Of a DNA stretch of 64,000 bases, positions 14,714-50,447 are shown in pieces; within the stretch, counting starts at the first letter, position 1, and every line of letters starts with the position of its first letter. The notes below the pieces were generated by a model. It worked only from the letters and a program-made list of their open reading frames with translations. It had not been told where the DNA came from and did no database searches. Position numbers and translations under genes: made by a program. The stretch covers positions 29,388-93,387 of the forward strand of contig JANLFM010000004.1 of assembly GCA_024655865.1 (NCBI GenBank). The letters run 5' to 3'. The DNA is from Caldisericota bacterium (GTDB taxonomy: Bacteria; Caldisericota; JANLFM01).

Positions 14714-17152
14714 GTGAAAATAACATTCGTTACCGCAGAAGCTGCTCCATTTGCCAAGATCGGGGGCCTGGGTGATGTAGCCAGCTCCCTTCCCAAAGCG
14801 CTCGCCCAGAAAGGTCACGCTCTTTCCGTGATCATTCCCGGATATTCCCTGATCCCCGGGATCAAGGAGATGGAGGAAATTGCTAACTTCTCCGTTCCCT
14901 GGCAGGGGGGTGAGGAGCGCGTTCTTCTGCGCAAAAAGAGCCTCTGGGACATCGATTTTTACTTTTTGGAAAACCAGAGGTACTCGAGCCGGGAGAAGAT
15001 TTATGGCTATCCGGACGACGCCCTGCGCTTCGCCTTTTTTTCCCGATCCACCCTGGAGTCCCTGAAGGTCATAGGATTCCCTGAGCTCCTCCACCTCCAC
15101 GACTGGCACAGCTGTCCCATTTTCCTCTATCTGGGAACAGTTTACAAGGATAACCCCGATTATTCCCGCCTGGCCACGGTTTTCACGATCCACAATTTGG
15201 CCTTTCAGGGTATCCAGGATCCGCACTTCCTGAATGAAGCGGGAATTCCGATTTCCCCTCATGATGAGAGGGTGGAGTTTTACGGAAAGGTGAACCTCCT
15301 CAAAGCCGGGATCCTCTCCTCGGATATGGTGACTACGGTGAGCGAAACCTACGCCCGGGAAATCCAGACCCCTGCTTTAGGCATGGGGCTGGAGGGAGTC
15401 CTCGCCCTGCGCAAAAAACAGCTCGTGGGCATTACAAACGGCATCGACACCGAGGAGTTTGACCCCGCGGAATTCGGATATAAATCGGGAGATCCTTCCT
15501 CCTTTAAGGTCAGAGCCAAGCAGGTTCTTCAGCAAAAGCTGGGCCTGGAGGTAAATGAGAAAATTCCACTTTTGGCCTTGGTTTCCCGCCTGACCGATCA
15601 GAAAGGCCTGGACCTTTTCCCTCCCATCCTGGACCAGCTCATGGCCAAAGATGTGCAGCTTGTGATCCTGGGACAGGGCGAGGAGCGCTATCAAGCCTTT
15701 TTTAAGGAAGCGGCATCAAGGTACCCGGAGAGGATCTCCCTGAATTTGACCTTCGATCCGGAACTCGCCAAACTGATCTACGCTGGAGCGGACATCTTCC
15801 TCATGCCCTCTCGTTTCGAGCCCTGTGGCCTGGGGCAGATGATTGCCATGCGCTACGGAACGATTCCTGTGGTCAGGAAAACCGGAGGATTGGCGGACAC
15901 CGTAATTCATTTCGACCGGGAGGGAGGAACTGGAAACGGTTTCCTCTTCAGCCAGTATGAACCCCGCTCTTTCTTAGAGGCTATAATAGAGTGCCTGGAA
16001 GTCTACCGTGACAGGAGCCTCTGGATACAGCTTGTGCGCAATGCCCTATCAAGCGATTTCTCCTGGGGAAAGACGGTTTTTAAGTACGAGGAGGTTTACC
16101 GCCGGGCCATTTACCTGCACGCCAAAAAAATAGGGACCGTGAATCCCCCGGAAATCCGCAAGGATCCGATTTTGGAGGAGTGGGCAATCATTGCCAAGGG
16201 GAGGACAAAAAGGCCCAGCGATTACAAGTCAAAAGAGGACGAGTATCAGAAGAACCAGCTGGAGAACTGCCCCTTCTGCCAGGGAAACGAAAAAATGACC
16301 CCGGATGAGCTTTATGCTTTTCGCCCCAACGGAGGGAAGCCCAACTCCCCCGGCTGGGAAGTGCGCGTTTTCGACAACAAATACCCGGCTTTGATGAAGG
16401 ATGAGGACCCGGCACACGGGCACTCCTGGCTCTTCACGCACATCTCCGGCGTGGGAGCGCATGAGGTGATTGTGGAGACTCCGGACCATCATAGGGACCT
16501 TCCTGATCTTTCTGACGAACAATTGATTCATGTCCTCAGGGCATACCGGGAAAGGTATCGCGTTTTATCCCTGAACAAGGACCTGCGCTATATTTTGATT
16601 TTCCGCAACCACGGGCGTTCCGCAGGGGCATCCCTGTCCCACCCTCATTCCCAGTTAATTGCCACACCCATCGTTCCCAGGCGCATCAAGGAGGAACTGG
16701 ATTCCGCCCACACTTTCTACGAGCATACCGGGGAATGCATTTTCTGCGCCTTAATCAGGGAGGAACTGGAACAAAAGCAACGGGTGATCTTAGAGAATCA
16801 GGATTTTCTGGCCTTCGCCCCCTACGCCTCGCGCTTCCCCTTTGAAATCACGGTCATCCCCAAAAGACACCAGGCGGCATTCTCCGATCTGGAAAACGGG
16901 GAGCTCCTTTCCCTGGCACAAATGCTCAAGGATGTCCTGGGCCGGTTGAAGAGAGGAGTTAATGACCCTCCTTACAATATGATGATTCACTCCGCACCCC
17001 TGGGCTTCCTTTACATCCCTTACTATCACTGGCATATCGAGATCATTCCCAGGCTGACAACGCCCGCTGGTTTCGAGTGGGGAACGGACTTTTATATCAA
17101 CCCCACCCCCCCGGAGGAGGCGGCCCGATTCCTTAAAGAGGGAAAGATCTAA
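14714..17152 (+). CDS. Glycogen synthase (GT5) fused to galactose-1-phosphate uridylyltransferase
   Basis: An 812-residue fusion. Residues 1 to about 475 are a GT5 glycogen/starch synthase: KIGGLGDV (15-22) binds the nucleotide sugar, TNGID (241-245) and SRFEPCGLGQM (366-376) are catalytic-domain signatures. Residues about 478-812 are a GalT of the HIT superfamily: CPFC (519-522) and CIFC (675-678) are metal-binding pairs, HPHSQ (643-647) carries the nucleotidylated His, and HWHIE (772-776) closes the fold. The junction is in frame without a stop. The fusion could link nucleotide-sugar exchange to glucan extension. The GTG start lacks a ribosome site; see the promoter at 14677. Confidence 0.9.
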   Translation: MKITFVTAEAAPFAKIGGLGDVASSLPKALAQKGHALSVIIPGYSLIPGIKEMEEIANFSVPWQGGEERVLLRKKSLWDIDFYFLENQRYSSREKIYGYPDDALRFAFFSRSTLESLKVIGFPELLHLHDWHSCPIFLYLGTVYKDNPDYSRLATVFTIHNLAFQGIQDPHFLNEAGIPISPHDERVEFYGKVNLLKAGILSSDMVTTVSETYAREIQTPALGMGLEGVLALRKKQLVGITNGIDTEEFDPAEFGYKSGDPSSFKVRAKQVLQQKLGLEVNEKIPLLALVSRLTDQKGLDLFPPILDQLMAKDVQLVILGQGEERYQAFFKEAASRYPERISLNLTFDPELAKLIYAGADIFLMPSRFEPCGLGQMIAMRYGTIPVVRKTGGLADTVIHFDREGGTGNGFLFSQYEPRSFLEAIIECLEVYRDRSLWIQLVRNALSSDFSWGKTVFKYEEVYRRAIYLHAKKIGTVNPPEIRKDPILEEWAIIAKGRTKRPSDYKSKEDEYQKNQLENCPFCQGNEKMTPDELYAFRPNGGKPNSPGWEVRVFDNKYPALMKDEDPAHGHSWLFTHISGVGAHEVIVETPDHHRDLPDLSDEQLIHVLRAYRERYRVLSLNKDLRYILIFRNHGRSAGASLSHPHSQLIATPIVPRRIKEELDSAHTFYEHTGECIFCALIREELEQKQRVILENQDFLAFAPYASRFPFEITVIPKRHQAAFSDLENGELLSLAQMLKDVLGRLKRGVNDPPYNMMIHSAPLGFLYIPYYHWHIEIIPRLTTPAGFEWGTDFYINPTPPEEAARFLKEGKI

Positions 17153-21962: not shown

Positions 21963-22598
21963 TTGAACAACGTGATTCAAGAAATGGAAAGTGCGCTTAT
22001 GCGCATTAAATCTGTTTTGGGGGCCAAAATTGTCACGGACCAAAAAGGGGAGATCGTGGAAGTTCACGTCCTGGCAACAGACCAGAGAAACCCAAAACAG
22101 GTGGTCAGGGATGTCGAGTCCACCCTGCTCGTGAAATTCGGAAGAAAAGTGGATCACAAAAAAATCGGGGTTGTCCAGCAGAGCGAGAGGGAAGCGGAAC
22201 ATCCTCTGGAAGGAAGGCTGAAGTTTGTGGGGATTAGCACCATGCCCGGGGAGCAGAACTTCTTCGAAGTCATCCTTAGGGACCCCTCGGGAGTAGAGCA
22301 TCCCGGACAGGCCTTCATCCGCGACCCCTTGCAGAGACTCCAGGCTATCGGGCAGGCCGCGATCACCGCCGTAAACCACTTCCTGAATCAGGAAAGGCTG
22401 CACCTCCAGGAGGTTTATGTGCTCAAGACCGTGGAACTGCCCTTCGTTGTTTCCTCGGTTCTTTACCGTGGAAAAAAGGGGAACCTGGTATTGGCCGGCG
22501 CGGCACCTGTCCGAGGAAGCGAGGAGGAAGCAGCAGTGAAGAGCGTTCTGAGCGCTATTAACCGCTTGCTCCCCAAGATCGTGGAGGGAGAAGTTTAA
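21963..22598 (+). CDS. Uncharacterised alpha/beta protein, paralog of the protein at 45288-45929
   Basis: A soluble 211-residue protein without signal peptide or membrane segment. I do not recognise a named domain. The N-terminal part (RIKSVLGAKIVTDQKGEIVE, then RNPKQVVRDVESTLL) is followed by a linker and a C-terminal module with QAAITAVNHFL, VVSSVLYRGKKGNLVLAGAA and AVKSVLSAINRLL. The C-terminal module has the same order of features as the protein at 45288-45929, so the two look like distant paralogs. TTG 21963 is the start, behind AAGGAGG with a rather long spacing. It precedes the HD-domain genes, which may suggest a signalling link, but this is only context. Confidence 0.6.
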   Translation: MNNVIQEMESALMRIKSVLGAKIVTDQKGEIVEVHVLATDQRNPKQVVRDVESTLLVKFGRKVDHKKIGVVQQSEREAEHPLEGRLKFVGISTMPGEQNFFEVILRDPSGVEHPGQAFIRDPLQRLQAIGQAAITAVNHFLNQERLHLQEVYVLKTVELPFVVSSVLYRGKKGNLVLAGAAPVRGSEEEAAVKSVLSAINRLLPKIVEGEV

Positions 22599-22612
22599 AA
22601 TTTTTCGAAAAA

Positions 22613-22641
22613 TTTACCCCTTGACCTGAATCCTCTATAAT
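22613..22641 (+). promoter_or_regulatory. Promoter upstream of the structured RNA and HD operon
   Basis: TATAAT at 22636-22641 is a perfect -10. TTTACC at 22613-22618 lies 17 bp upstream as a 4-of-6 -35. A perfect palindrome with arms AAATTTTTC/GAAAAATTT covers 22598-22615, overlapping the -35 and possibly acting as an operator. Transcription would begin near 22649, exactly at the base of the long-range stem. Confidence 0.6.
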
Positions 22642-22649
22642 CTTTTTTC

Positions 22650-22854
22650 GGACGGCGCATTCTGAAGCGGGAAACTCCCTTGAGCGGAGCGCTTGTTTGG
22701 AGAACAAATGAGTGCGAAAGGGGGTATCCCCATGAGACGCTGGTTAACGAGAGCTCTGTGGTTTGTAGCCACCATCGCTTCCTTGATCCTGGCATCCGGA
22801 GCGGACGTAAAGTGGGGCGGCAGGTAGCGAACGCCTGAGGGGAGTGCGCCGTCT
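22650..22854 (+). ncRNA. Candidate structured RNA (leader or ncRNA) ahead of the HD genes
   Basis: The two ends pair over 205 nt: GACGGCGCA (22651-22659) with TGCGCCGTC (22845-22853). On the 3' side the stem continues as AGGGGAG (22838-22844) pairing with CTCCCTT (22675-22681), leaving a small 5' insertion. Inside, 22689-22699 pairs with 22705-22715 over 11 bp around a GAGAA loop, and GGGG/CCCC forms a hairpin at about 22720-22731. The start matches the predicted transcription start. I could not match it to a riboswitch, 6S, SRP or RNase P RNA. It ends 9 bases before the HD gene start codon, so it could be its 5' leader. Confidence 0.5.
22732..22827 (+). CDS. Possible 31-residue membrane peptide inside the structured leader
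   Basis: ATG 22732 opens a 31-codon frame with a basic start (MRRWLTRAL) and a hydrophobic stretch (LWFVATIASLILASGA). AAGGGGG lies at a workable distance upstream but is part of a GGGG/CCCC hairpin, which would hide it. The frame lies wholly inside the 22650-22854 RNA structure, so it may be chance. If translated, it would be a small membrane peptide whose synthesis could alter leader folding. Confidence 0.3.
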   Translation: MRRWLTRALWFVATIASLILASGADVKWGGR

Positions 22855-22863
22855 AATAAAAGG

Positions 22864-24105
22864 ATGAAAAAAGAATTTCCAAAAGGCCTAAAGGTCTATC
22901 TGGCGCTGATCATCACAGGGGGTTCTGCTGCCCTCTATCTTACTTTCCCTTACTGGCACGCAACTCTTATCTGGGATTATCTAATCTTTGCCCTCATCAG
23001 CTATTTTGCCTATATTCTTCTCGTCAAACTTCCAAAGCTCAACGCATACCTTTCCGTGGCCTCCCACATGAACTTCGCAGCACTTTTCCTCTTCGGTCCC
23101 TTCGCCATCTGGATCCCTGCTCTAACCGGGGCTCTCCCGGATAGCCTCCCCTTAAAGAAACCCTACATTTACCTCTTCAACGGAGCTCAGTTCGCCCTCT
23201 CCTACGGCCTGGCGGCCCTGACTTATTACGGCGCCGGAGGAACTGCCCTCTCTTTATCTTTTGCGGTTCCCATAAAAACCATCCTCCCCGCTCTCCTGAG
23301 CGGATTAGTTTATTCCTTAGTCAATGTCGGCCTGACTGCAGGAGCGATCTCCTTTGACCAGGGGCCTTTTGTTAAGGTTTTCTGGAACGTCATCAAGTGG
23401 GAATTCCCCAACATGCTGATCGCCGTCCCCTTCGCCCTCTTTCTGGCCTACATCTTCACCCAGTTAGGCTATCTGGGACTGGCGATCCTCTTTTTCCCCC
23501 TGCTCGCCTCCCGCTATATCTTCCAGGCCTACATTCGTATTCAGGAAACCTATTCCGAGACCGTCCGTGCCCTGATGGCCACGGTGGACAAAAAGTTCGG
23601 GCAGCCCGGCCGCAACCAGAAGGTCTACCAGTACGCGCTCCAGGTTAGCCAGAGTCTGGGTCTTTCCCCGGAGGAAGCTGAAATTTTAGGATATGCCAGC
23701 TACTTACGCCACATTGGATTAATAGGGATTGAAAACAGCATGCTGGAGTTCACCCTTTCCCAGCCCATCTGGTCTTCGAGCCCCATAGTCGTTAATGCCT
23801 TACTTGCTGGCTCTCAGATCTTGGAGCGGACCGAGACTTTGAAAAGGGCCGCCCCCTTCATCCGGCTACACCATGAAAAATGGGATGGAACTGGCCCCTG
23901 GGGTTTGAAGGAGGAGCAAATTCCTCTCGGGGCGCGCATTATCTCCGCCTGTGAATTCCTGGAGGAATTAGAATACCGTGGAAGTAAAAGGGAGGAAATT
24001 TTGAAACACTTGAGGGAAAGGAGCGGAAAGCATTATGATCCCCGCGTGGTGCAGGCTCTTATTTCCCTTCTGGAAAAGGAGAGAGATGAACAGAAAACTT
24101 CTTAA
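22864..24105 (+). CDS. Membrane protein with degenerate HD domain
   Basis: A 413-residue protein: about seven hydrophobic segments in residues 1-220, then a cytoplasmic HD-type domain. The metal-binding HD pair is lost: the position of LHDIGK in active relatives reads LRHIGLIG. Later it has HHEKWDGTGPWG instead of HHEKxxGxGYP, and the downstream aspartate of LADAFDAM-like segments is missing (SACEFLEEL). It is therefore probably catalytically dead and may sense a signal or regulate its partner. It overlaps the next, intact HD-GYP gene by 20 bases, and the two share the same architecture. The upstream leader contains the structured RNA. Confidence 0.75.
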   Translation: MKKEFPKGLKVYLALIITGGSAALYLTFPYWHATLIWDYLIFALISYFAYILLVKLPKLNAYLSVASHMNFAALFLFGPFAIWIPALTGALPDSLPLKKPYIYLFNGAQFALSYGLAALTYYGAGGTALSLSFAVPIKTILPALLSGLVYSLVNVGLTAGAISFDQGPFVKVFWNVIKWEFPNMLIAVPFALFLAYIFTQLGYLGLAILFFPLLASRYIFQAYIRIQETYSETVRALMATVDKKFGQPGRNQKVYQYALQVSQSLGLSPEEAEILGYASYLRHIGLIGIENSMLEFTLSQPIWSSSPIVVNALLAGSQILERTETLKRAAPFIRLHHEKWDGTGPWGLKEEQIPLGARIISACEFLEELEYRGSKREEILKHLRERSGKHYDPRVVQALISLLEKERDEQKTS

Positions 24106-25357
24106 TTACCTTTTAATTCTCTCCCCGGCACTTTTAATCTCCGGGTGGTACGCATTTTCTCTTGACCCGGGCTCTTTTTTGGGGGTCGTGCCCTTAGCGG
24201 TTTTGGCTTTCCTTTTGCGTTCTCTGGAAGTCTCCTATTTTGGGGAAGTGATTTCCCCCGCAAGCGCCGTCACCCTAACTTCCCTTTTTCTTTTCCCCGC
24301 TCCCCAGGCCCTTGTGGTTCTCTTTGCCTCTCTTCTTGGAGGCCTTGCTTTTCTCCGCTTTTCTCACATCCAAGAGGACGGTTTCCTGAAATCCATAGCC
24401 TCCGAACTGGGCGGTTTCCTTGGGGCTTTGCTCCTCTATCGCCTATATTTCTCATCCCAGTTAATTGGCATCTCGTTAAGCACGTATTCGCCATCTCTTC
24501 TCTTGGCCCTGGGGGCCGTCTTTGGGGGATATGCTCTTACCTCCAGTATCCTTTCTCTCATTAGCTCATTTGTCCTCCGCACCAACTTAAGGGATACCCT
24601 GAGAGTGCAGCTTTCTCCTTTCTATTTCGGCCTCTATTTCGTTCTGGGAGTGAGCCTGCTCCTCCTCGTCCCCACATATTCCGCCTTTGGCGTTTTGGGT
24701 TTCCTTTTGGGCTTGATTCCCCTGTGCGTATTTTTCTTCGCCTCCAAGCTCTACTTTCACACTCAGGAGGTTTACCGTCAGTCCCTGCGCTCGCTGGTGG
24801 GAGTGATCGAAGCTATGGACCCCTACACGCACGGCCATTCCGACCGGGTGGCCCTCATCTCCCTGGAAATTGGGAAGAGGATGCCTTTATCCCAGTCAAG
24901 GTTGCAGCTTTTGGAATACGCCGCCTACTTGCACGACATGGGCAAGGTCTCCATCGATCCCGCCATCCTGCGCAAACCGGAGGCCCTTTCCGAGGAGGAG
25001 TGGAAAATAATCAGATCCCACCCTGAGGATGGGGTAGAGATCCTGCGAAACGTGAAATTCCTCAAGCCCATCCTGCCCTGGATCGAGCATCATCATGAGA
25101 AGGCCAACGGTACCGGTTACCCCTCGGCTCTCCCCTTAAAGAAAATTCCCCTGGAAGCCCGAATTATCACCCTGGCCGATGCCTTTGACGCCATGATCTC
25201 CAATCGCCCTTATCGCCCTGCCCTGACGGTGGAGGAGGCGAAAAGGGAGATCGAGAGGAACACGGGTTCCCAGTTCGACCCCATCCTGGTGAAAAAGTTC
25301 CAGCGCCTCATAAAGAAAAAGGACTTTGTTCGGACGCTGGGCTTCCCCAAGCGGTGA
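24086..25357 (+). CDS. Membrane-anchored HD-GYP domain phosphodiesterase
   Basis: A 423-residue protein with an N-terminal multi-pass membrane region (residues 1-220) and a C-terminal HD-GYP domain. LHDMGKVSID has the intact HD pair, and HHHEKANGTGYPS is the GYP motif, followed by ARIITLADAFDAM. HD-GYP proteins usually hydrolyse cyclic di-GMP or related dinucleotides. ATG 24086 has AAGGAG upstream and overlaps the degenerate partner gene; the frame open from 24035 is not used. No other c-di-GMP gene is visible in the window, so the signal is uncertain. Confidence 0.82.
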   Translation: MNRKLLNYLLILSPALLISGWYAFSLDPGSFLGVVPLAVLAFLLRSLEVSYFGEVISPASAVTLTSLFLFPAPQALVVLFASLLGGLAFLRFSHIQEDGFLKSIASELGGFLGALLLYRLYFSSQLIGISLSTYSPSLLLALGAVFGGYALTSSILSLISSFVLRTNLRDTLRVQLSPFYFGLYFVLGVSLLLLVPTYSAFGVLGFLLGLIPLCVFFFASKLYFHTQEVYRQSLRSLVGVIEAMDPYTHGHSDRVALISLEIGKRMPLSQSRLQLLEYAAYLHDMGKVSIDPAILRKPEALSEEEWKIIRSHPEDGVEILRNVKFLKPILPWIEHHHEKANGTGYPSALPLKKIPLEARIITLADAFDAMISNRPYRPALTVEEAKREIERNTGSQFDPILVKKFQRLIKKKDFVRTLGFPKR

Positions 25358-45287: not shown

Positions 45288-45929
45288 TCAGATGGAGATC
45301 CGTCCCCAGATCCTGTTCAAGCTGTCCAGAGTAGCTTTGACTACAGCTTCCAGATAGTTGTTCTTCACAAAGGCCGAACCGGTCAGGGTTTGCTCTCCGT
45401 ATGAGGAACAGACGCTAACGCAGACCACAATCAACGCTCTATCCTGTATGGTGAGTTCCTGGCACCCTAAGAGGGAAAGGCTGAATGATTCCTTGAGAAA
45501 GCCCTCTAAGGCCCTCAGCGTGGCCTGGGAAATGAGCATGCGCACGAAGGCTGCCGTGTTTGGGCCCGAGGCCTCTCCCCAAAAATGATCGCCTCTCCAG
45601 GAAAGACAAACCCTCACCTGGGCGTGATCTGCAGAGGTCTCAAAAGAAACTTTGTCCACCTTGGGCCTACCCCAGCTCTGAGCGAGGTCTCGGGAATTCC
45701 AAACGGCGATGTTAATTACTGCGGGATCAAGGTCGTCACCCATGAGTTCTGATACGAGCTGAGAGATCTCTCTCCTCCATTGAGAATAATTGCGGGAATT
45801 ATCTACGATGAGGTTCAGCGCCTCAAGCTTGTTTTCTGTTCCAAATTTGGAGGATACGGCCAGGATTCCTTCGATGCTCCTCAGCTTTTCCTCCAAGATT
45901 TGCTTTATTTCCATGCTTTCCCGGCCCAT
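45288..45929 (-). CDS. Uncharacterised alpha/beta protein, paralog of the protein at 21963-22598
   Basis: A soluble 213-residue protein of unknown function. It shares the domain order of the 211-residue protein at 21963: an N-terminal helix with a GIL/SVL turn, LVSELMGDDLDPAVINIAV, then RMLISQATLRALEGFL, IVVCVSVCSSYGEQTLTGSA and AVVKATLDSLNRIW. Two starts are possible: ATG 45929, only ten bases after TATAAT (45945-45940), which would make a nearly leaderless message, or ATG 45914 with a weak GGGA. The transposase locus begins 45 bases upstream. Confidence 0.6.
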   Translation of the reverse strand: MGRESMEIKQILEEKLRSIEGILAVSSKFGTENKLEALNLIVDNSRNYSQWRREISQLVSELMGDDLDPAVINIAVWNSRDLAQSWGRPKVDKVSFETSADHAQVRVCLSWRGDHFWGEASGPNTAAFVRMLISQATLRALEGFLKESFSLSLLGCQELTIQDRALIVVCVSVCSSYGEQTLTGSAFVKNNYLEAVVKATLDSLNRIWGRISI

Positions 45930-46019: not shown

Positions 46020-46862
46020 ATGGCCAGACCACTGAGAATCGAATATCCCGGAGCTGTATACCACGTCACCTCTCGGGGTAACGCCCGCCAGGATATATTC
46101 CTGGACTCAAAGGATCGAGAACTTTTCCTCAAAACGCTCGCCGAGGTTGTCGATGAGTTTAACTGGCTCTGTCACGCCTATTGCCTCATGGATAACCACT
46201 ACCATCTCCTTCTGGAAACTCCGGACGCCAATCTCTCCCGGGGCATGCGCCAGTTGAACGGGGTTTACACTCAAATATTCAACCGCAGGCATAATACTTT
46301 TGGCCATCTCTTTCAGGGCCGCTACAAGGCAATCCTGGTAGAAAAGGAACGCTACCTCCTGGCGCTCTGTCGGTACATTGTCCTCAACCCCGTGCGCTCC
46401 GGAAAAGCGAAAGAGGTTCAAGATTGGGCCTGGAGCAGCTATCAAGCCACGGCCGGCCTCGCTCCGCCCCCTCCATTCCTTGTTACCGATTGGATTTTGG
46501 GGCAATTTGCACCCGAGAAGAATAAGGCCCAGGCACTCTATCGCCAGTTTGTAAATTCCTGGCCGGGCACCTCTCCCTGGGATGATCTCCGCGGACAGAT
46601 TTATTTGGGGAGCGAGAGGTTCATTAAGGATCTTGCCAATGGGAATGCCCTTGCCAAAGGAAATGCCCTTACTGAGGTTCCCCGCTTCCAGAGGAACGTG
46701 AACCGGCTCGGGCTCGAGGAAATTTTTGCAGGACGACCCCAGGAGGAGGCGATTGCCCTGGCTTATCGGGAACATGGCTACACGATGAAGGAGATCGCCG
46801 CATACTTGGGAGTTCATTACGCTACTGTCAGCAGGCGCTTACGGCGCTCCCGCCCCCTGTAG
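46020..46862 (+). CDS. REP-associated tyrosine transposase (IS200-like Y1, RAYT)
   Basis: A 280-residue single-strand DNA transposase. The N terminus MARPLRIEYPGAVYHVTSRG is the signature of RAYT proteins. MDNHYHLLLET has the HUH metal motif (His-Tyr-His here), and the catalytic Tyr is in CRYIVLNPVRSG. The C-terminal ~60 residues form a helix-turn-helix (MKEIAAYLGVHYATVSRRLR). An internal repeat NGNALAKGNAL is visible near residue 205. It is flanked by inverted copies of the dispersed repeat, as expected for a RAYT and its REP targets. The gene looks intact. Confidence 0.9.
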   Translation: MARPLRIEYPGAVYHVTSRGNARQDIFLDSKDRELFLKTLAEVVDEFNWLCHAYCLMDNHYHLLLETPDANLSRGMRQLNGVYTQIFNRRHNTFGHLFQGRYKAILVEKERYLLALCRYIVLNPVRSGKAKEVQDWAWSSYQATAGLAPPPPFLVTDWILGQFAPEKNKAQALYRQFVNSWPGTSPWDDLRGQIYLGSERFIKDLANGNALAKGNALTEVPRFQRNVNRLGLEEIFAGRPQEEAIALAYREHGYTMKEIAAYLGVHYATVSRRLRRSRPL

Positions 46863-47576: not shown

Positions 47577-47582
47577 GGCCCC

Positions 47583-47800
47583 AAAGCGAAGAAGGGAGAG
47601 GAGTAAGCCTCGTCGCTTGCCTCAGAGAGGGGAAGTAAGGTGCGAGTTCCCTGGCAGGCAGAAGCTGAAGTCGCTCTCTGAGCTGGATGCTGAAATTAAA
47701 AGTAGGCTTTCCCGCTGGCTGCGTTAAAACCAAGAGAGCCCATTATGGGAATTAAGGTGGTACCGCGGACCTCCGTCCTTGACGGAGGTTTTTCTTTTTA
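47583..47800 (+). promoter_or_regulatory. T-box riboswitch (tRNA-Val sensing) with terminator, controlling valS
   Basis: The T-box core AAGGTGGTACCGCGG is at 47754-47768. Its TGGT can pair with the ACCA end of uncharged tRNA-Val. Upstream stem I shows the AGTA turn (GAGGAGTAAG), AGAGAG and GGTGCGAG elements, and a specifier region CTGAAGTCG with the valine codon GTC. The terminator has 9-bp arms ACCTCCGTC/GACGGAGGT (47769-47789) followed by a T-rich run to 47798. Low charging of tRNA-Val would favour the antiterminator and raise ValS. Confidence 0.92.
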
Positions 47801-47819: not shown

Positions 47820-50447
47820 ATGGAGATATCCACGGCTTACGAGCCTAAGGCAGTAGAAAAAAGGATATACCGGTTCTGGCTGGACGGAAATTATTTCCGT
47901 GCCGAAATCGATTACCACAAAAAACCGGCTGTAATTTCTATGCCCCCTCCCAACGTTTACGGCTCCCTGCATATGGGACATGGCTTCAATAACACCCTTC
48001 AGGACCTGATCATCCGCTTTTGGAGAATGAGCGGGCTGAACGCTCTCTGGGTTCCCGGACTGGATCACGCTGGTTTAGCTTTCCAGAACGCAGTAGAAAA
48101 GGAGCTTCGCAAGGAGGGCCTCTCCCGTTTCGATTTGGGGAGAGAGGAGTTTTTAAAGAGGTGTTTTAAGTGGAAGGAGGAACAGGCTGCCTACGTGGTG
48201 GAACAGCTTCAGACAATGGGGGCTTCAGCGGATTGGTCCCGTTTGCGCTTCACGATGGACGAGGCTTACCAGAAAGCTGTGCGCCGCCAATTCGTGCAAC
48301 TTTTCCAGGATGGATTGATCTACAGGGGAACCCGGATCATAAACTGGTGCCCTACCTGTCTCACGGCACTTTCGGATATCGAGGTGGAGTACGAGGAGGA
48401 GCAAGCCTTCCTCTATTATGTGCGCTATCCCCTGGAGGGAGGGGAGGGCTTCATCACGGTGGCCACAACCAGGCCGGAAACGATGCTCGGAGACACAGGA
48501 GTAGCAGTACACCCGGAGGATTTAAGATACCGTTCCTTAATCGGTAAAACAGCCATCCTCCCCATTATGAATCGCAAAATTCCCATTGTGGCCGATGAGG
48601 CTGTTGACCCCACCTTTGGTACAGGAGCGGTAAAGATCACCCCGGCTCATGATCCGGTGGACTACGAGGTTGGTCAGAGGCACAATCTTCCCCCCATCTC
48701 CGTGATCGGCGAAAAGGGGAAGATGACCTCTGATGCCGGAAAGTACGCGGGAAAAGATCGCCTGGAAGCGCGAAAGGAAATCGTAGAGGAACTTAAAAGA
48801 GAAGGGCTTCTTCTGAAAGTGGAGCCCTACACTCACGCCTTGGGCAAGTGCTACCGCTGCCACCAGCCCATAGAGCCCTTGATTTCCACACAGTGGTTCG
48901 TGAAAATGAAACCCCTGGCCATACCGGCGATGGAGGTCGTGGAAAGAGGAGAAATTAAGTTTTACCCTGAGCGATGGAAAAAGGTATATATGGACTGGAT
49001 GGAGAATATAAAGGACTGGTGCATCTCGCGCCAGATCTGGTGGGGGCACCGGATTCCTGTCTGGTACTGTCAGTCCTGCGGGGAAGTTTTCGCCAGCGAG
49101 GATGATCCGGAAAGGTGCCCCCACTGTGGTTCTCCTGATTTAAAGCAGGATCCTGACGCCCTGGACACCTGGTTTTCCTCTAATTTATGGCCCTTCGCCA
49201 TCTTAGGCTGGCCTGAGGACACCCCCGACCTCCGCTATTTTTTCCCCACCACGGTGCTCTCTACGGGATACGACATCATCTTCTTCTGGGTGGCACGCAT
49301 GATTATGGCTTCCCTCTATTTCACGAAGAAGATCCCCTTCAGCAAGGTGTACATTCACGGGCTAATCAGGGATGGAAAAGGAAGAAAGATGTCCCGCTCC
49401 TTGGGCAACGTGATAGACCCCTTAGAGAAAATGGAGCAATACGGCACCGACGCTTTTCGATTCGCCATGGCGGCCTCAGCCACTCTTGGAGGCCAGGACA
49501 TTCCTATGGGTGAAGAGCGCTTCGAGCGGGGGCGAAATTTCACGAACAAGCTCTGGAACGCCTCCCGCTTCCTTTTAATCAACCTCGAGGGGTACGACCC
49601 TCAAGCTCGACCCGCCGACTCCCTCCCTCACAGATATATTCGCTCTCGCCTGAACAAAGTAATTGAGGAAGTTACCAGGGACCTTGAGGAGTTCAATTTT
49701 GCTGATTGTACGCACACTCTGGAGGAATTCTTCTGGGGAGAGTTCTGCGACTGGTATATCGAGATGTGCAAAACCGACCTTGCCCGTGGTGGTGAGGCCA
49801 AGAAAGGGGCACAGGTGGTTCTCCACGACACCCTTGAGACCATCCTCAGGCTCCTACATCCCATTTGCCCCTTCATCACCGAGGAGCTCTGGCAGAAGCT
49901 ACCGGGTAAAAAGGGGCCTGCCTTGATCGTTGCTCCCTGGCCCAAGCCCGAGAAAAGCCTTTACGATGAGGATGCGGAAGAGAGGATGGAGTGTCTTAAG
50001 GCCTTCGTGCGCACTGTACGCAATTTGCGCGCCGAAGGGGGCCTTCCTCCATCGAACTTCATCAAGGCTCTGGTGATTACCGATTCCCAGACTCAAAAAA
50101 CTATCCAGGAGTCCCTGGAATACATTCTTCCCCTGGCCCGCCTGAGCGAGGTGGAGTTCCTGGAGGAGAAAAGAAGGCCTAAAGGGTCCCTTGGCGGGAT
50201 TGCTCAGGGCATGGAGATCTTTCTGCCCCTTACCATTCAGGAAAAAGAAAGCCTGCTTGCCCGGATGAGGAAGGATTCGGAGAAATTGAAAGCGGACTAC
50301 GAGCGCGTCCTTCTTCGGATATCTAACCCCGAGTTTCACAAAAAGGCTCCTCCCGAGGTTTTGGAAAAACAAAAAAGAAGCCTTGAGGATTTGAAGTTTC
50401 GCCTGGAGCGAGTGCAAAAAATCATCGAAGAGCTGGAGGAAGAATGA
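47820..50447 (+). CDS. valS: Valyl-tRNA synthetase
   Basis: An 875-residue class I synthetase that charges tRNA-Val and edits mischarged threonine. PPPNVYGSLHMGHGFNNT contains the HIGH motif (HMGH), GRKMSRSLGN the KMSKS motif, and VATTRPETMLGDTGVAVHP the editing domain. The C terminus ends in the usual coiled-coil arm (KLKADYERVLLR through KIIEELEE). The helical segment after HIGH has GLDHAGLAFQ, a variant of the usual GTDHAGIATQ. ATG 47820 has AAGGAG upstream. folC overlaps by four bases. Confidence 0.95.
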   Translation: MEISTAYEPKAVEKRIYRFWLDGNYFRAEIDYHKKPAVISMPPPNVYGSLHMGHGFNNTLQDLIIRFWRMSGLNALWVPGLDHAGLAFQNAVEKELRKEGLSRFDLGREEFLKRCFKWKEEQAAYVVEQLQTMGASADWSRLRFTMDEAYQKAVRRQFVQLFQDGLIYRGTRIINWCPTCLTALSDIEVEYEEEQAFLYYVRYPLEGGEGFITVATTRPETMLGDTGVAVHPEDLRYRSLIGKTAILPIMNRKIPIVADEAVDPTFGTGAVKITPAHDPVDYEVGQRHNLPPISVIGEKGKMTSDAGKYAGKDRLEARKEIVEELKREGLLLKVEPYTHALGKCYRCHQPIEPLISTQWFVKMKPLAIPAMEVVERGEIKFYPERWKKVYMDWMENIKDWCISRQIWWGHRIPVWYCQSCGEVFASEDDPERCPHCGSPDLKQDPDALDTWFSSNLWPFAILGWPEDTPDLRYFFPTTVLSTGYDIIFFWVARMIMASLYFTKKIPFSKVYIHGLIRDGKGRKMSRSLGNVIDPLEKMEQYGTDAFRFAMAASATLGGQDIPMGEERFERGRNFTNKLWNASRFLLINLEGYDPQARPADSLPHRYIRSRLNKVIEEVTRDLEEFNFADCTHTLEEFFWGEFCDWYIEMCKTDLARGGEAKKGAQVVLHDTLETILRLLHPICPFITEELWQKLPGKKGPALIVAPWPKPEKSLYDEDAEERMECLKAFVRTVRNLRAEGGLPPSNFIKALVITDSQTQKTIQESLEYILPLARLSEVEFLEEKRRPKGSLGGIAQGMEIFLPLTIQEKESLLARMRKDSEKLKADYERVLLRISNPEFHKKAPPEVLEKQKRSLEDLKFRLERVQKIIEELEEE

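What the first reader, a model, noticed from the sequence alone, without database searches (positions are those of the whole stretch)
22650..22854. Unassigned 205-nt structured RNA ahead of the HD/HD-GYP genes
Seen: a perfect -10 box places the start at the base of a long-range 9-bp stem, extended by 7 more pairs, with an internal 11-bp hairpin including G-U pairs. I could not match it to known RNA classes. Its position suggests a riboswitch-like leader for nucleotide-signalling proteins or an independent ncRNA.
Basis: partly seen in the sequence, partly recalled or inferred. Interest (0 to 1): 0.7.

Follow-up and report, generated by a model that had tools for sequence, protein, structure and literature searches.

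The report
Ring-shaped mRNA encoding conserved micropeptide
The supposed non-coding RNA is a real, evolutionarily conserved folded RNA, but nearly half of it is a tiny gene for a 31-amino-acid membrane or secreted peptide that bacteria of five unrelated groups carry, mostly placed just before a membrane-bound second-messenger enzyme, which suggests a signalling partnership not described in the databases and papers searched.

Summary
In detail: promoter, long-range closing stem and internal hairpin are at the stated place, and the fold is better than shuffles. It is under strong protein-level selection (pN/pS 0.06-0.29) and is better conserved than both neighbours. Related loci in two further phyla keep the layout: 211-aa gene, closed RNA carrying AGCGNAGC, a 21-29-aa ORF, MASE9-HD gene. 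In one of those phyla the closing stem shows massive compensatory change (15 of 17 pairs changed on both sides; 0/500 shuffles as good). No Rfam, Pfam or NCBIfam family matches. In other lineages, including the rest of the window's phylum, the same kind of micropeptide gene stands before MASE9-HD genes without the closed RNA, in up to six tandem copies. So the constant unit is micropeptide plus MASE9-HD protein; the closed RNA is a lineage-specific mRNA leader. The peptide reads as a signal peptide or single membrane helix with a 4-7-residue tail holding a conserved Trp. Best mechanism (inferred): membrane-inserted or exported peptide acting on the MASE9 sensor, with the RNA limiting its translation and protecting the transcript.

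The parts
22613..22641 (+). Promoter, -35 TTTACC, 17-nt spacer, -10 TATAAT; start expected about 22648-22650, at the foot of the closing stem
   Evidence: the same TATAAT-8 nt-GGACGGCG arrangement is seen by eye in the two relatives L002 and L003
22650..22663 (+). 5' arm of the closing stem (P1)
   Evidence: covarying counterpart in A7
22841..22854 (+). 3' arm of the closing stem (P1), between the micropeptide stop codon and the HD gene
22683..22690 (+). AGCGGAGC, the conserved AGCGNAGC motif that lies 46-98 nt (mostly 46-73) before the micropeptide start
   Evidence: present in 33 of 35 ring-type loci, about 0.02 expected per 110 nt
22689..22715 (+). Inner 11-bp hairpin
   Evidence: pairs partly kept in L002/L003
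22675..22681 (+). Anti-Shine-Dalgarno CUCCCUU, pairs with the micropeptide's Shine-Dalgarno
   Evidence: SD unpaired probability 0.00-0.17 in the three f1 sequences; not conserved in all lineages
22719..22724 (+). Shine-Dalgarno AGGGGG of the micropeptide gene
22732..22827 (+). Micropeptide gene, 31 aa, MRRWLTRALWFVATIASLILASGADVKWGGR
22864..24105 (+). MASE9-HD membrane protein; HD-GYP catalytic motifs degenerate (LRHIG, DGTGPWG)
24035..25357 (+). HD-GYP membrane protein with intact motifs (LHDMGK, HHEKANGTGYP); reading frame overlaps the previous gene
21963..22598 (+). 211-aa protein of unknown family that precedes the closed RNA in the ring-type lineages
   Evidence: no Pfam match

Best explanation
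The element is the structured first part of an operon mRNA. Transcription starts at the foot of a long stem that closes the first ~205 nt into a ring; the ring holds a short ORF for a conserved micropeptide, and the MASE9-HD and HD-GYP genes follow. Shown: promoter match, closing stem with compensatory changes in relatives, protein-level selection on the ORF, and repeated linkage of this ORF to MASE9-HD genes. Inferred: the peptide inserts in or crosses the membrane through its signal-peptide-like helix and regulates the MASE9 sensor domain of the adjacent HD/HD-GYP (c-di-GMP phosphodiesterase type) proteins, either as a bound membrane subunit or as a short exported Trp-containing peptide. Also inferred: the RNA ring shields the transcript's 5' end and, in the window's lineage, hides the micropeptide's Shine-Dalgarno, so that peptide output is limited and can be controlled.
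For: ORF: 97% and 71% identity in two relatives, against 82-83% and 51-56% for its neighbours. pN/pS 0.06 and 0.27. It has a good SD, and is the only ORF of its kind in 64 kb; 0 were found in 132 kb of control loci. Linkage: an ORF of this kind lies before the HD gene in 35 ring-type loci, in 8 inspected loci of a fourth phylum, and in five genera of two other families of the window's own phylum, up to six tandem copies. All eleven first-downstream proteins that were tested carry MASE9 plus an HD domain. RNA: closing stem and inner hairpin covary in A7, 91.5% cells paired against 75% shuffled and 44-53% slid, 0/500. The motif is near-exclusive to the leader. Every peptide tested has a small residue at a possible cleavage point followed by a 4-7-residue tail.
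Against: No expression, topology or binding data exist. Two genomes carry the peptide gene alone with no MASE9-HD gene beside it (L127, L128), so it may have other partners. SD hiding is not conserved: in f209/f210 the SD is predicted open (0.66-0.72 unpaired), so that part of the mechanism is at best lineage-specific. Only three sequences represent the window's own ring lineage, so covariation there rests on homology with the other lineages.
Confidence: 0.55

Rival explanations
1. Cis-acting leader peptide: translation or stalling of the ORF opens or closes the ring and so sets expression of the HD genes, with no function for the peptide itself.
For: The 3' arm lies between the micropeptide stop and the HD start in the ring-type loci, usually 5-38 nt after the stop; the C-terminal half of the peptide is the best conserved.
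Against: The peptide gene is amplified up to six identical copies, stands alone in two genomes, and is separated from HD by over 200 nt with terminator-like hairpins in L091 and L093 (read by eye). Conservation continues where no ring RNA exists.
Confidence: 0.15
2. Riboswitch or protein-binding leader for the HD genes, with the ORF as a passenger.
For: Strong covariation and the near-invariant AGCGNAGC motif.
Against: Apart from that motif and the two helices no conserved pocket is seen; no Rfam class matches; the ORF is the part conserved where the RNA is absent.
Confidence: 0.12
3. Type I toxin of a toxin-antitoxin pair: a small hydrophobic toxin whose mRNA is kept folded back.
For: 21-32-aa hydrophobic peptide, 5'-3' fold-back, hidden SD in some lineages, resembling hok-type mRNAs (recalled knowledge).
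Against: Fixed position before MASE9-HD genes in several phyla, tandem copies with strong SDs, conserved charged-Trp tail; no antisense gene was identified, though it was not searched for exhaustively.
Confidence: 0.08
4. Independent non-coding RNA (6S-like or raiA-like) that merely overlaps an ORF.
For: Size, closing stem and own promoter.
Against: No match to 6S, raiA or any Rfam family; raiA RNA is a separate element present in the same loci of f209/f210 and absent from G000; coding selection.
Confidence: 0.05

Closest known systems
raiA RNA (ModT), Rfam RF03072
   Same: About 200 nt, conserved in many species; found in the same gene neighbourhood in f209/f210
   Different: Different family by covariance model; described as non-coding (PMC11706538), whereas this RNA encodes a peptide
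Phr / RRNPPA pheromone precursors and SHP/ComS short hydrophobic peptides
   Same: Tiny precursor beside its presumed receptor, signal-peptide-like helix, short C-terminal tail; multiple identical copies occur (PMC9765709 reports up to six copies of the mature peptide within propeptides)
   Different: Adjacent protein is a membrane MASE9-HD protein, not a cytoplasmic TPR or Rgg receptor; copies here are separate ORFs; secretion and signalling untested
Type I toxin mRNAs (hok and similar)
   Same: Small hydrophobic peptide in an mRNA with long-range 5'-3' pairing
   Different: Fixed partner gene, tandem amplification, no antitoxin RNA identified
Leader peptides with structured mRNAs (attenuators)
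   Same: Short ORF in a structured 5' leader of a regulated operon
   Different: ORF conserved without the leader structure, duplicated, sometimes transcriptionally separate
HD-GYP c-di-GMP phosphodiesterases with MASE9 sensor
   Same: The downstream genes are members by domain content
   Different: The first window copy has lost the HD and GYP motifs; the micropeptide partner was not found in the papers searched

Membership tests
raiA RNA (RF03072) | Match to the covariance model at the gathering score | tested here: not met
   No hit in window at E<=5; no hit in the G000 genome; the positive loci L076/L082 hit elsewhere, not at this RNA
6S RNA and all other Rfam 15 families, riboswitches included | Match to the covariance model | tested here: not met
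Riboswitch (as a kind) | Ligand binding that changes expression | not testable with these tools
   Needs in-line probing
Type I toxin-antitoxin | Antisense RNA gene overlapping the toxin mRNA | tested here: inconclusive
   The promoter scan of 22550-22950 shows no minus-strand promoter-like site; RNA-seq needed
Type I toxin-antitoxin | Toxicity on overexpression | not testable with these tools
   Bench test
Peptide pheromone precursor | Signal-peptide-like N-terminus and short C-terminal tail after a small residue | tested here: met
   25 of 25 peptides by a simple pattern; no trained predictor was available, so this is weak
Peptide pheromone precursor | Known family match (Phr, ComS, SHP) | tested here: not met
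   NCBIfam best E 0.05 for one of 23 members, Pfam none meaningful
Peptide pheromone precursor | Export and sensing by a receptor | not testable with these tools
   Mass spectrometry and reporter needed
MASE9-HD protein (gene after the element) | PF20972 plus PF13487 above the cut-offs | tested here: met
   22864-24105: MASE9 36 bits, HD_5 67.5 bits; the second gene has HD_5 but no MASE9 hit
Active HD-GYP phosphodiesterase (first gene, 22864-24105) | HD and GYP motifs | tested here: not met
   First gene: LRHIG and DGTGPWG; the second gene has both motifs intact
Protein-coding gene (micropeptide) | Start, SD, synonymous-biased substitution, frame kept | tested here: met

The most novel reading that the evidence does not exclude
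A previously undescribed peptide-signalling system: a precursor reduced to a signal peptide plus 4-7 residues, tail [D/N/R/K/H/G]-hydrophobic-[mostly basic]-Trp, often tandemly amplified, is exported and sensed by the MASE9 membrane domain of the adjacent HD-GYP enzyme, so that cell density or envelope state sets c-di-GMP; in three phyla the precursor mRNA is folded into a closed ring that governs its output.
Probability: 0.3. Interest if true: 0.9.

Novelty: new variant of a known kind. Interest (0 to 1): 0.72.

Why it matters
What MASE-type membrane sensors detect is largely unknown (own knowledge). A micropeptide genetically tied to MASE9-HD proteins in four phylum-level groups (and found alone in a fifth) is a concrete candidate ligand or subunit and makes the question testable. 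It also shows how a tiny gene can hide inside what looks like a non-coding RNA: coding and RNA-structure constraints coexist in one 205-nt unit that is absent from Rfam, Pfam and NCBIfam.

Tried and rejected
Known RNA families: none at permissive thresholds. raiA: a real neighbour in f209/f210 but a separate element. SD sequestration as the universal role of the ring: rejected, since the SD is open in f209/f210. Ring RNA as the constant part: rejected, since closing stem and motif are absent in seven loci outside the ring lineages. A plain duplex-energy test of the arms was noisy and was replaced by the longest-helix test. The narrow sORF profile (A2) found only three family members; distant members came through synteny with the 211-aa gene and a broader profile. 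Most weak hits look like chance; of those only L105 was followed up and kept. Literature searches on MASE9, HD-GYP with RNA motifs, and peptide pheromones with c-di-GMP found no description of this module. A single covariance model across all lineages was not built, because inner hairpins differ between lineages.

Full report
The promoter TTTACC-17-TATAAT (22613-22641) is the only promoter-like site in 22550-22950. The 205-nt stretch folds at -86.6 kcal/mol, against -73.6 +/- 4.5 for dinucleotide shuffles (z -2.9). Its ends pair in 14 uninterrupted pairs (22650-22663 with 22841-22854), better than any of 100 shuffles of the 3' side. The 11-bp hairpin is at 22689-22715. No Rfam 15 family matches, even at E 5.

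Bases 22732-22827 (+) are an ORF, MRRWLTRALWFVATIASLILASGADVKWGGR, preceded by AAAGGGGG. Two relatives carry it: L002 (genome G001, same genus; the same region as L021, a Caldisericota MAG) and L003 (G003, same family; the same region as L022, a Coprothermobacterota MAG). The peptide is 97% and 71% identical, while the flanking proteins are 83/51% and 82/56%. Substitutions are synonymous-biased: pN/pS 0.06 (window-L002) and 0.27 (window-L003), and 0.12-0.26 within families f205, f206, f209 and f210; f72 gives 0.57 but rests on two sequences. A filter (SD, basic start, hydrophobic core, Trp near the end, 18-36 aa) finds only this ORF in the 64-kb window, and nothing in 132 kb of control loci.

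THE SAME LAYOUT IN OTHER PHYLA. Searching with the upstream 211-aa protein (no Pfam family) reached distant genomes. Typical peptides are MAKVLSVLLGLLAIILASGAGFSWRP, MKINKAKLISFLISVMALLLAGGARFRW and MALLPALILSVLMASGGRNDW.

THE RNA RING IS REAL. In 35 ring-type loci the longest helix between the upstream leader and the region after the micropeptide stop codon beats shuffles in nearly all: 0-1 of 100 in 29 of 35; the weaker or unsupported ones are L073, L082, L084, L085, L091 and L093, with 2-21 of 100. The sequences of the arms differ completely between lineages: GGACGGCGCAUUCU, GGUCGGUGA, GGGUGGGCCAACAG, GGACCGGGACGAGCC and so on. On an unguided alignment of 17 sequences from G194's phylum (A7), closing stem plus inner hairpin give 91.5% paired cells (75.2 +/- 1.3 shuffled; 44-53% when slid), 21 of 24 pairs with changes on both sides, and a covariation score of 0.553 (0.276 shuffled), 0/500. 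A caveat: arm ends were chosen by helix search, so the stem is favoured; the inner hairpin (6 of 7 pairs with double changes, 98% paired) was not chosen that way. The motif AGCGNAGC lies before the ORF in 33 of 35 loci, where 0.02 per 110 nt is expected. The window's RNA shares synteny, ORF, motif and arm positions with these loci; in its own three-member lineage variation is too small for covariation.

THE PEPTIDE IS THE CONSTANT PART, NOT THE RING. A broader peptide profile found the gene elsewhere. In G226's phylum it stands directly before MASE9-HD genes in 8 inspected loci, as one to three copies; where the upstream side could be read, a different gene and not the 211-aa gene precedes it. 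In other families of the window's own phylum, MASE9-HD genes are preceded by MKWG-starting, KWH-ending peptides of the same build; G008 (closed, 1.6 Mb, probably Caldisericum exile by my inference) has six identical copies in a 104-bp tandem array, and a separate TTGACA/TATAAT-like site, read by eye, follows the array before the HD gene. Seven loci outside the ring lineages have neither ring stem nor motif, which also serves as a negative control of the ring test. Two genomes (G098, G424) carry the gene alone.

HOW IT MOST LIKELY WORKS. Tandem amplification, separate transcription in some genomes and conservation without the leader argue that the peptide acts in trans. Its anatomy is a short start (usually basic), about 15 hydrophobic residues, a small residue, and a 4-7-residue tail holding a Trp in 24 of the 25 listed. 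That fits a signal peptide with a tiny exported product, or a single-pass membrane peptide. Its usual neighbour is a polytopic MASE9 sensor domain joined to an HD-GYP-type domain, so regulation of that sensor is the simplest function. In the window's lineage the first HD protein has lost both catalytic motifs while the second keeps them, suggesting a sensor/effector split. The ring begins at the expected transcription start, so it can protect the 5' end. In the window lineage it also buries the SD (unpaired 0.00-0.17), but not in f209/f210; that role is therefore not general. All mechanism steps are inference; anatomy, selection and linkage are shown.

WHAT IT IS COMPARED WITH. It is not raiA RNA (tested), not any Rfam class (tested), and not a Pfam or NCBIfam peptide. 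It resembles pheromone precursors next to their receptors, for which multiple copies of the mature peptide are on record (PMC9765709), and fold-back mRNAs of small hydrophobic peptides; it is not shown to be a member of either. The papers searched do not describe it (open-access library only).

Noticed in passing
window 47580-47783 (+): T-box leader (RF00230, 113 bits) upstream of a valyl-tRNA-synthetase-like gene at 47820-50447; the only Rfam gathering-level hit in the window.
   Followed up: no
window 45288-45929 (-): Paralog of the 211-aa protein that precedes the ring RNA (E 2e-8 with A3); relatives have one too (L042, L044). Function unknown.
   Followed up: partly
L082:500-716 (+), L076:3047-3250 (-): raiA RNA (RF03072, about 170 bits) upstream of the HPF/RaiA-like gene, about 1.3 kb before the ring RNA, in two families of G194's phylum; absent from G000.
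   Followed up: partly
L050:797-1420: Six identical head-to-tail 104-bp units, each with an SD and a 28-aa micropeptide ORF, before a MASE9-HD gene in a closed 1.6-Mb genome.
   Followed up: yes
window 22864-24105: MASE9-HD protein with degenerate HD (LRHIG) and GYP (DGTGPWG) motifs, overlapping an intact HD-GYP gene at 24035; the degeneration is shared by L003.
   Followed up: partly
window 14714-17152 (+): 812-aa ORF that looks like a glycogen synthase fused to a galactose-1-phosphate uridylyltransferase-like domain (read from sequence, no domain search run).
   Followed up: no
window 46020-46862 (+): REP-associated (Y1) transposase-like gene next to the 211-aa paralog (read from sequence).
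   Followed up: no
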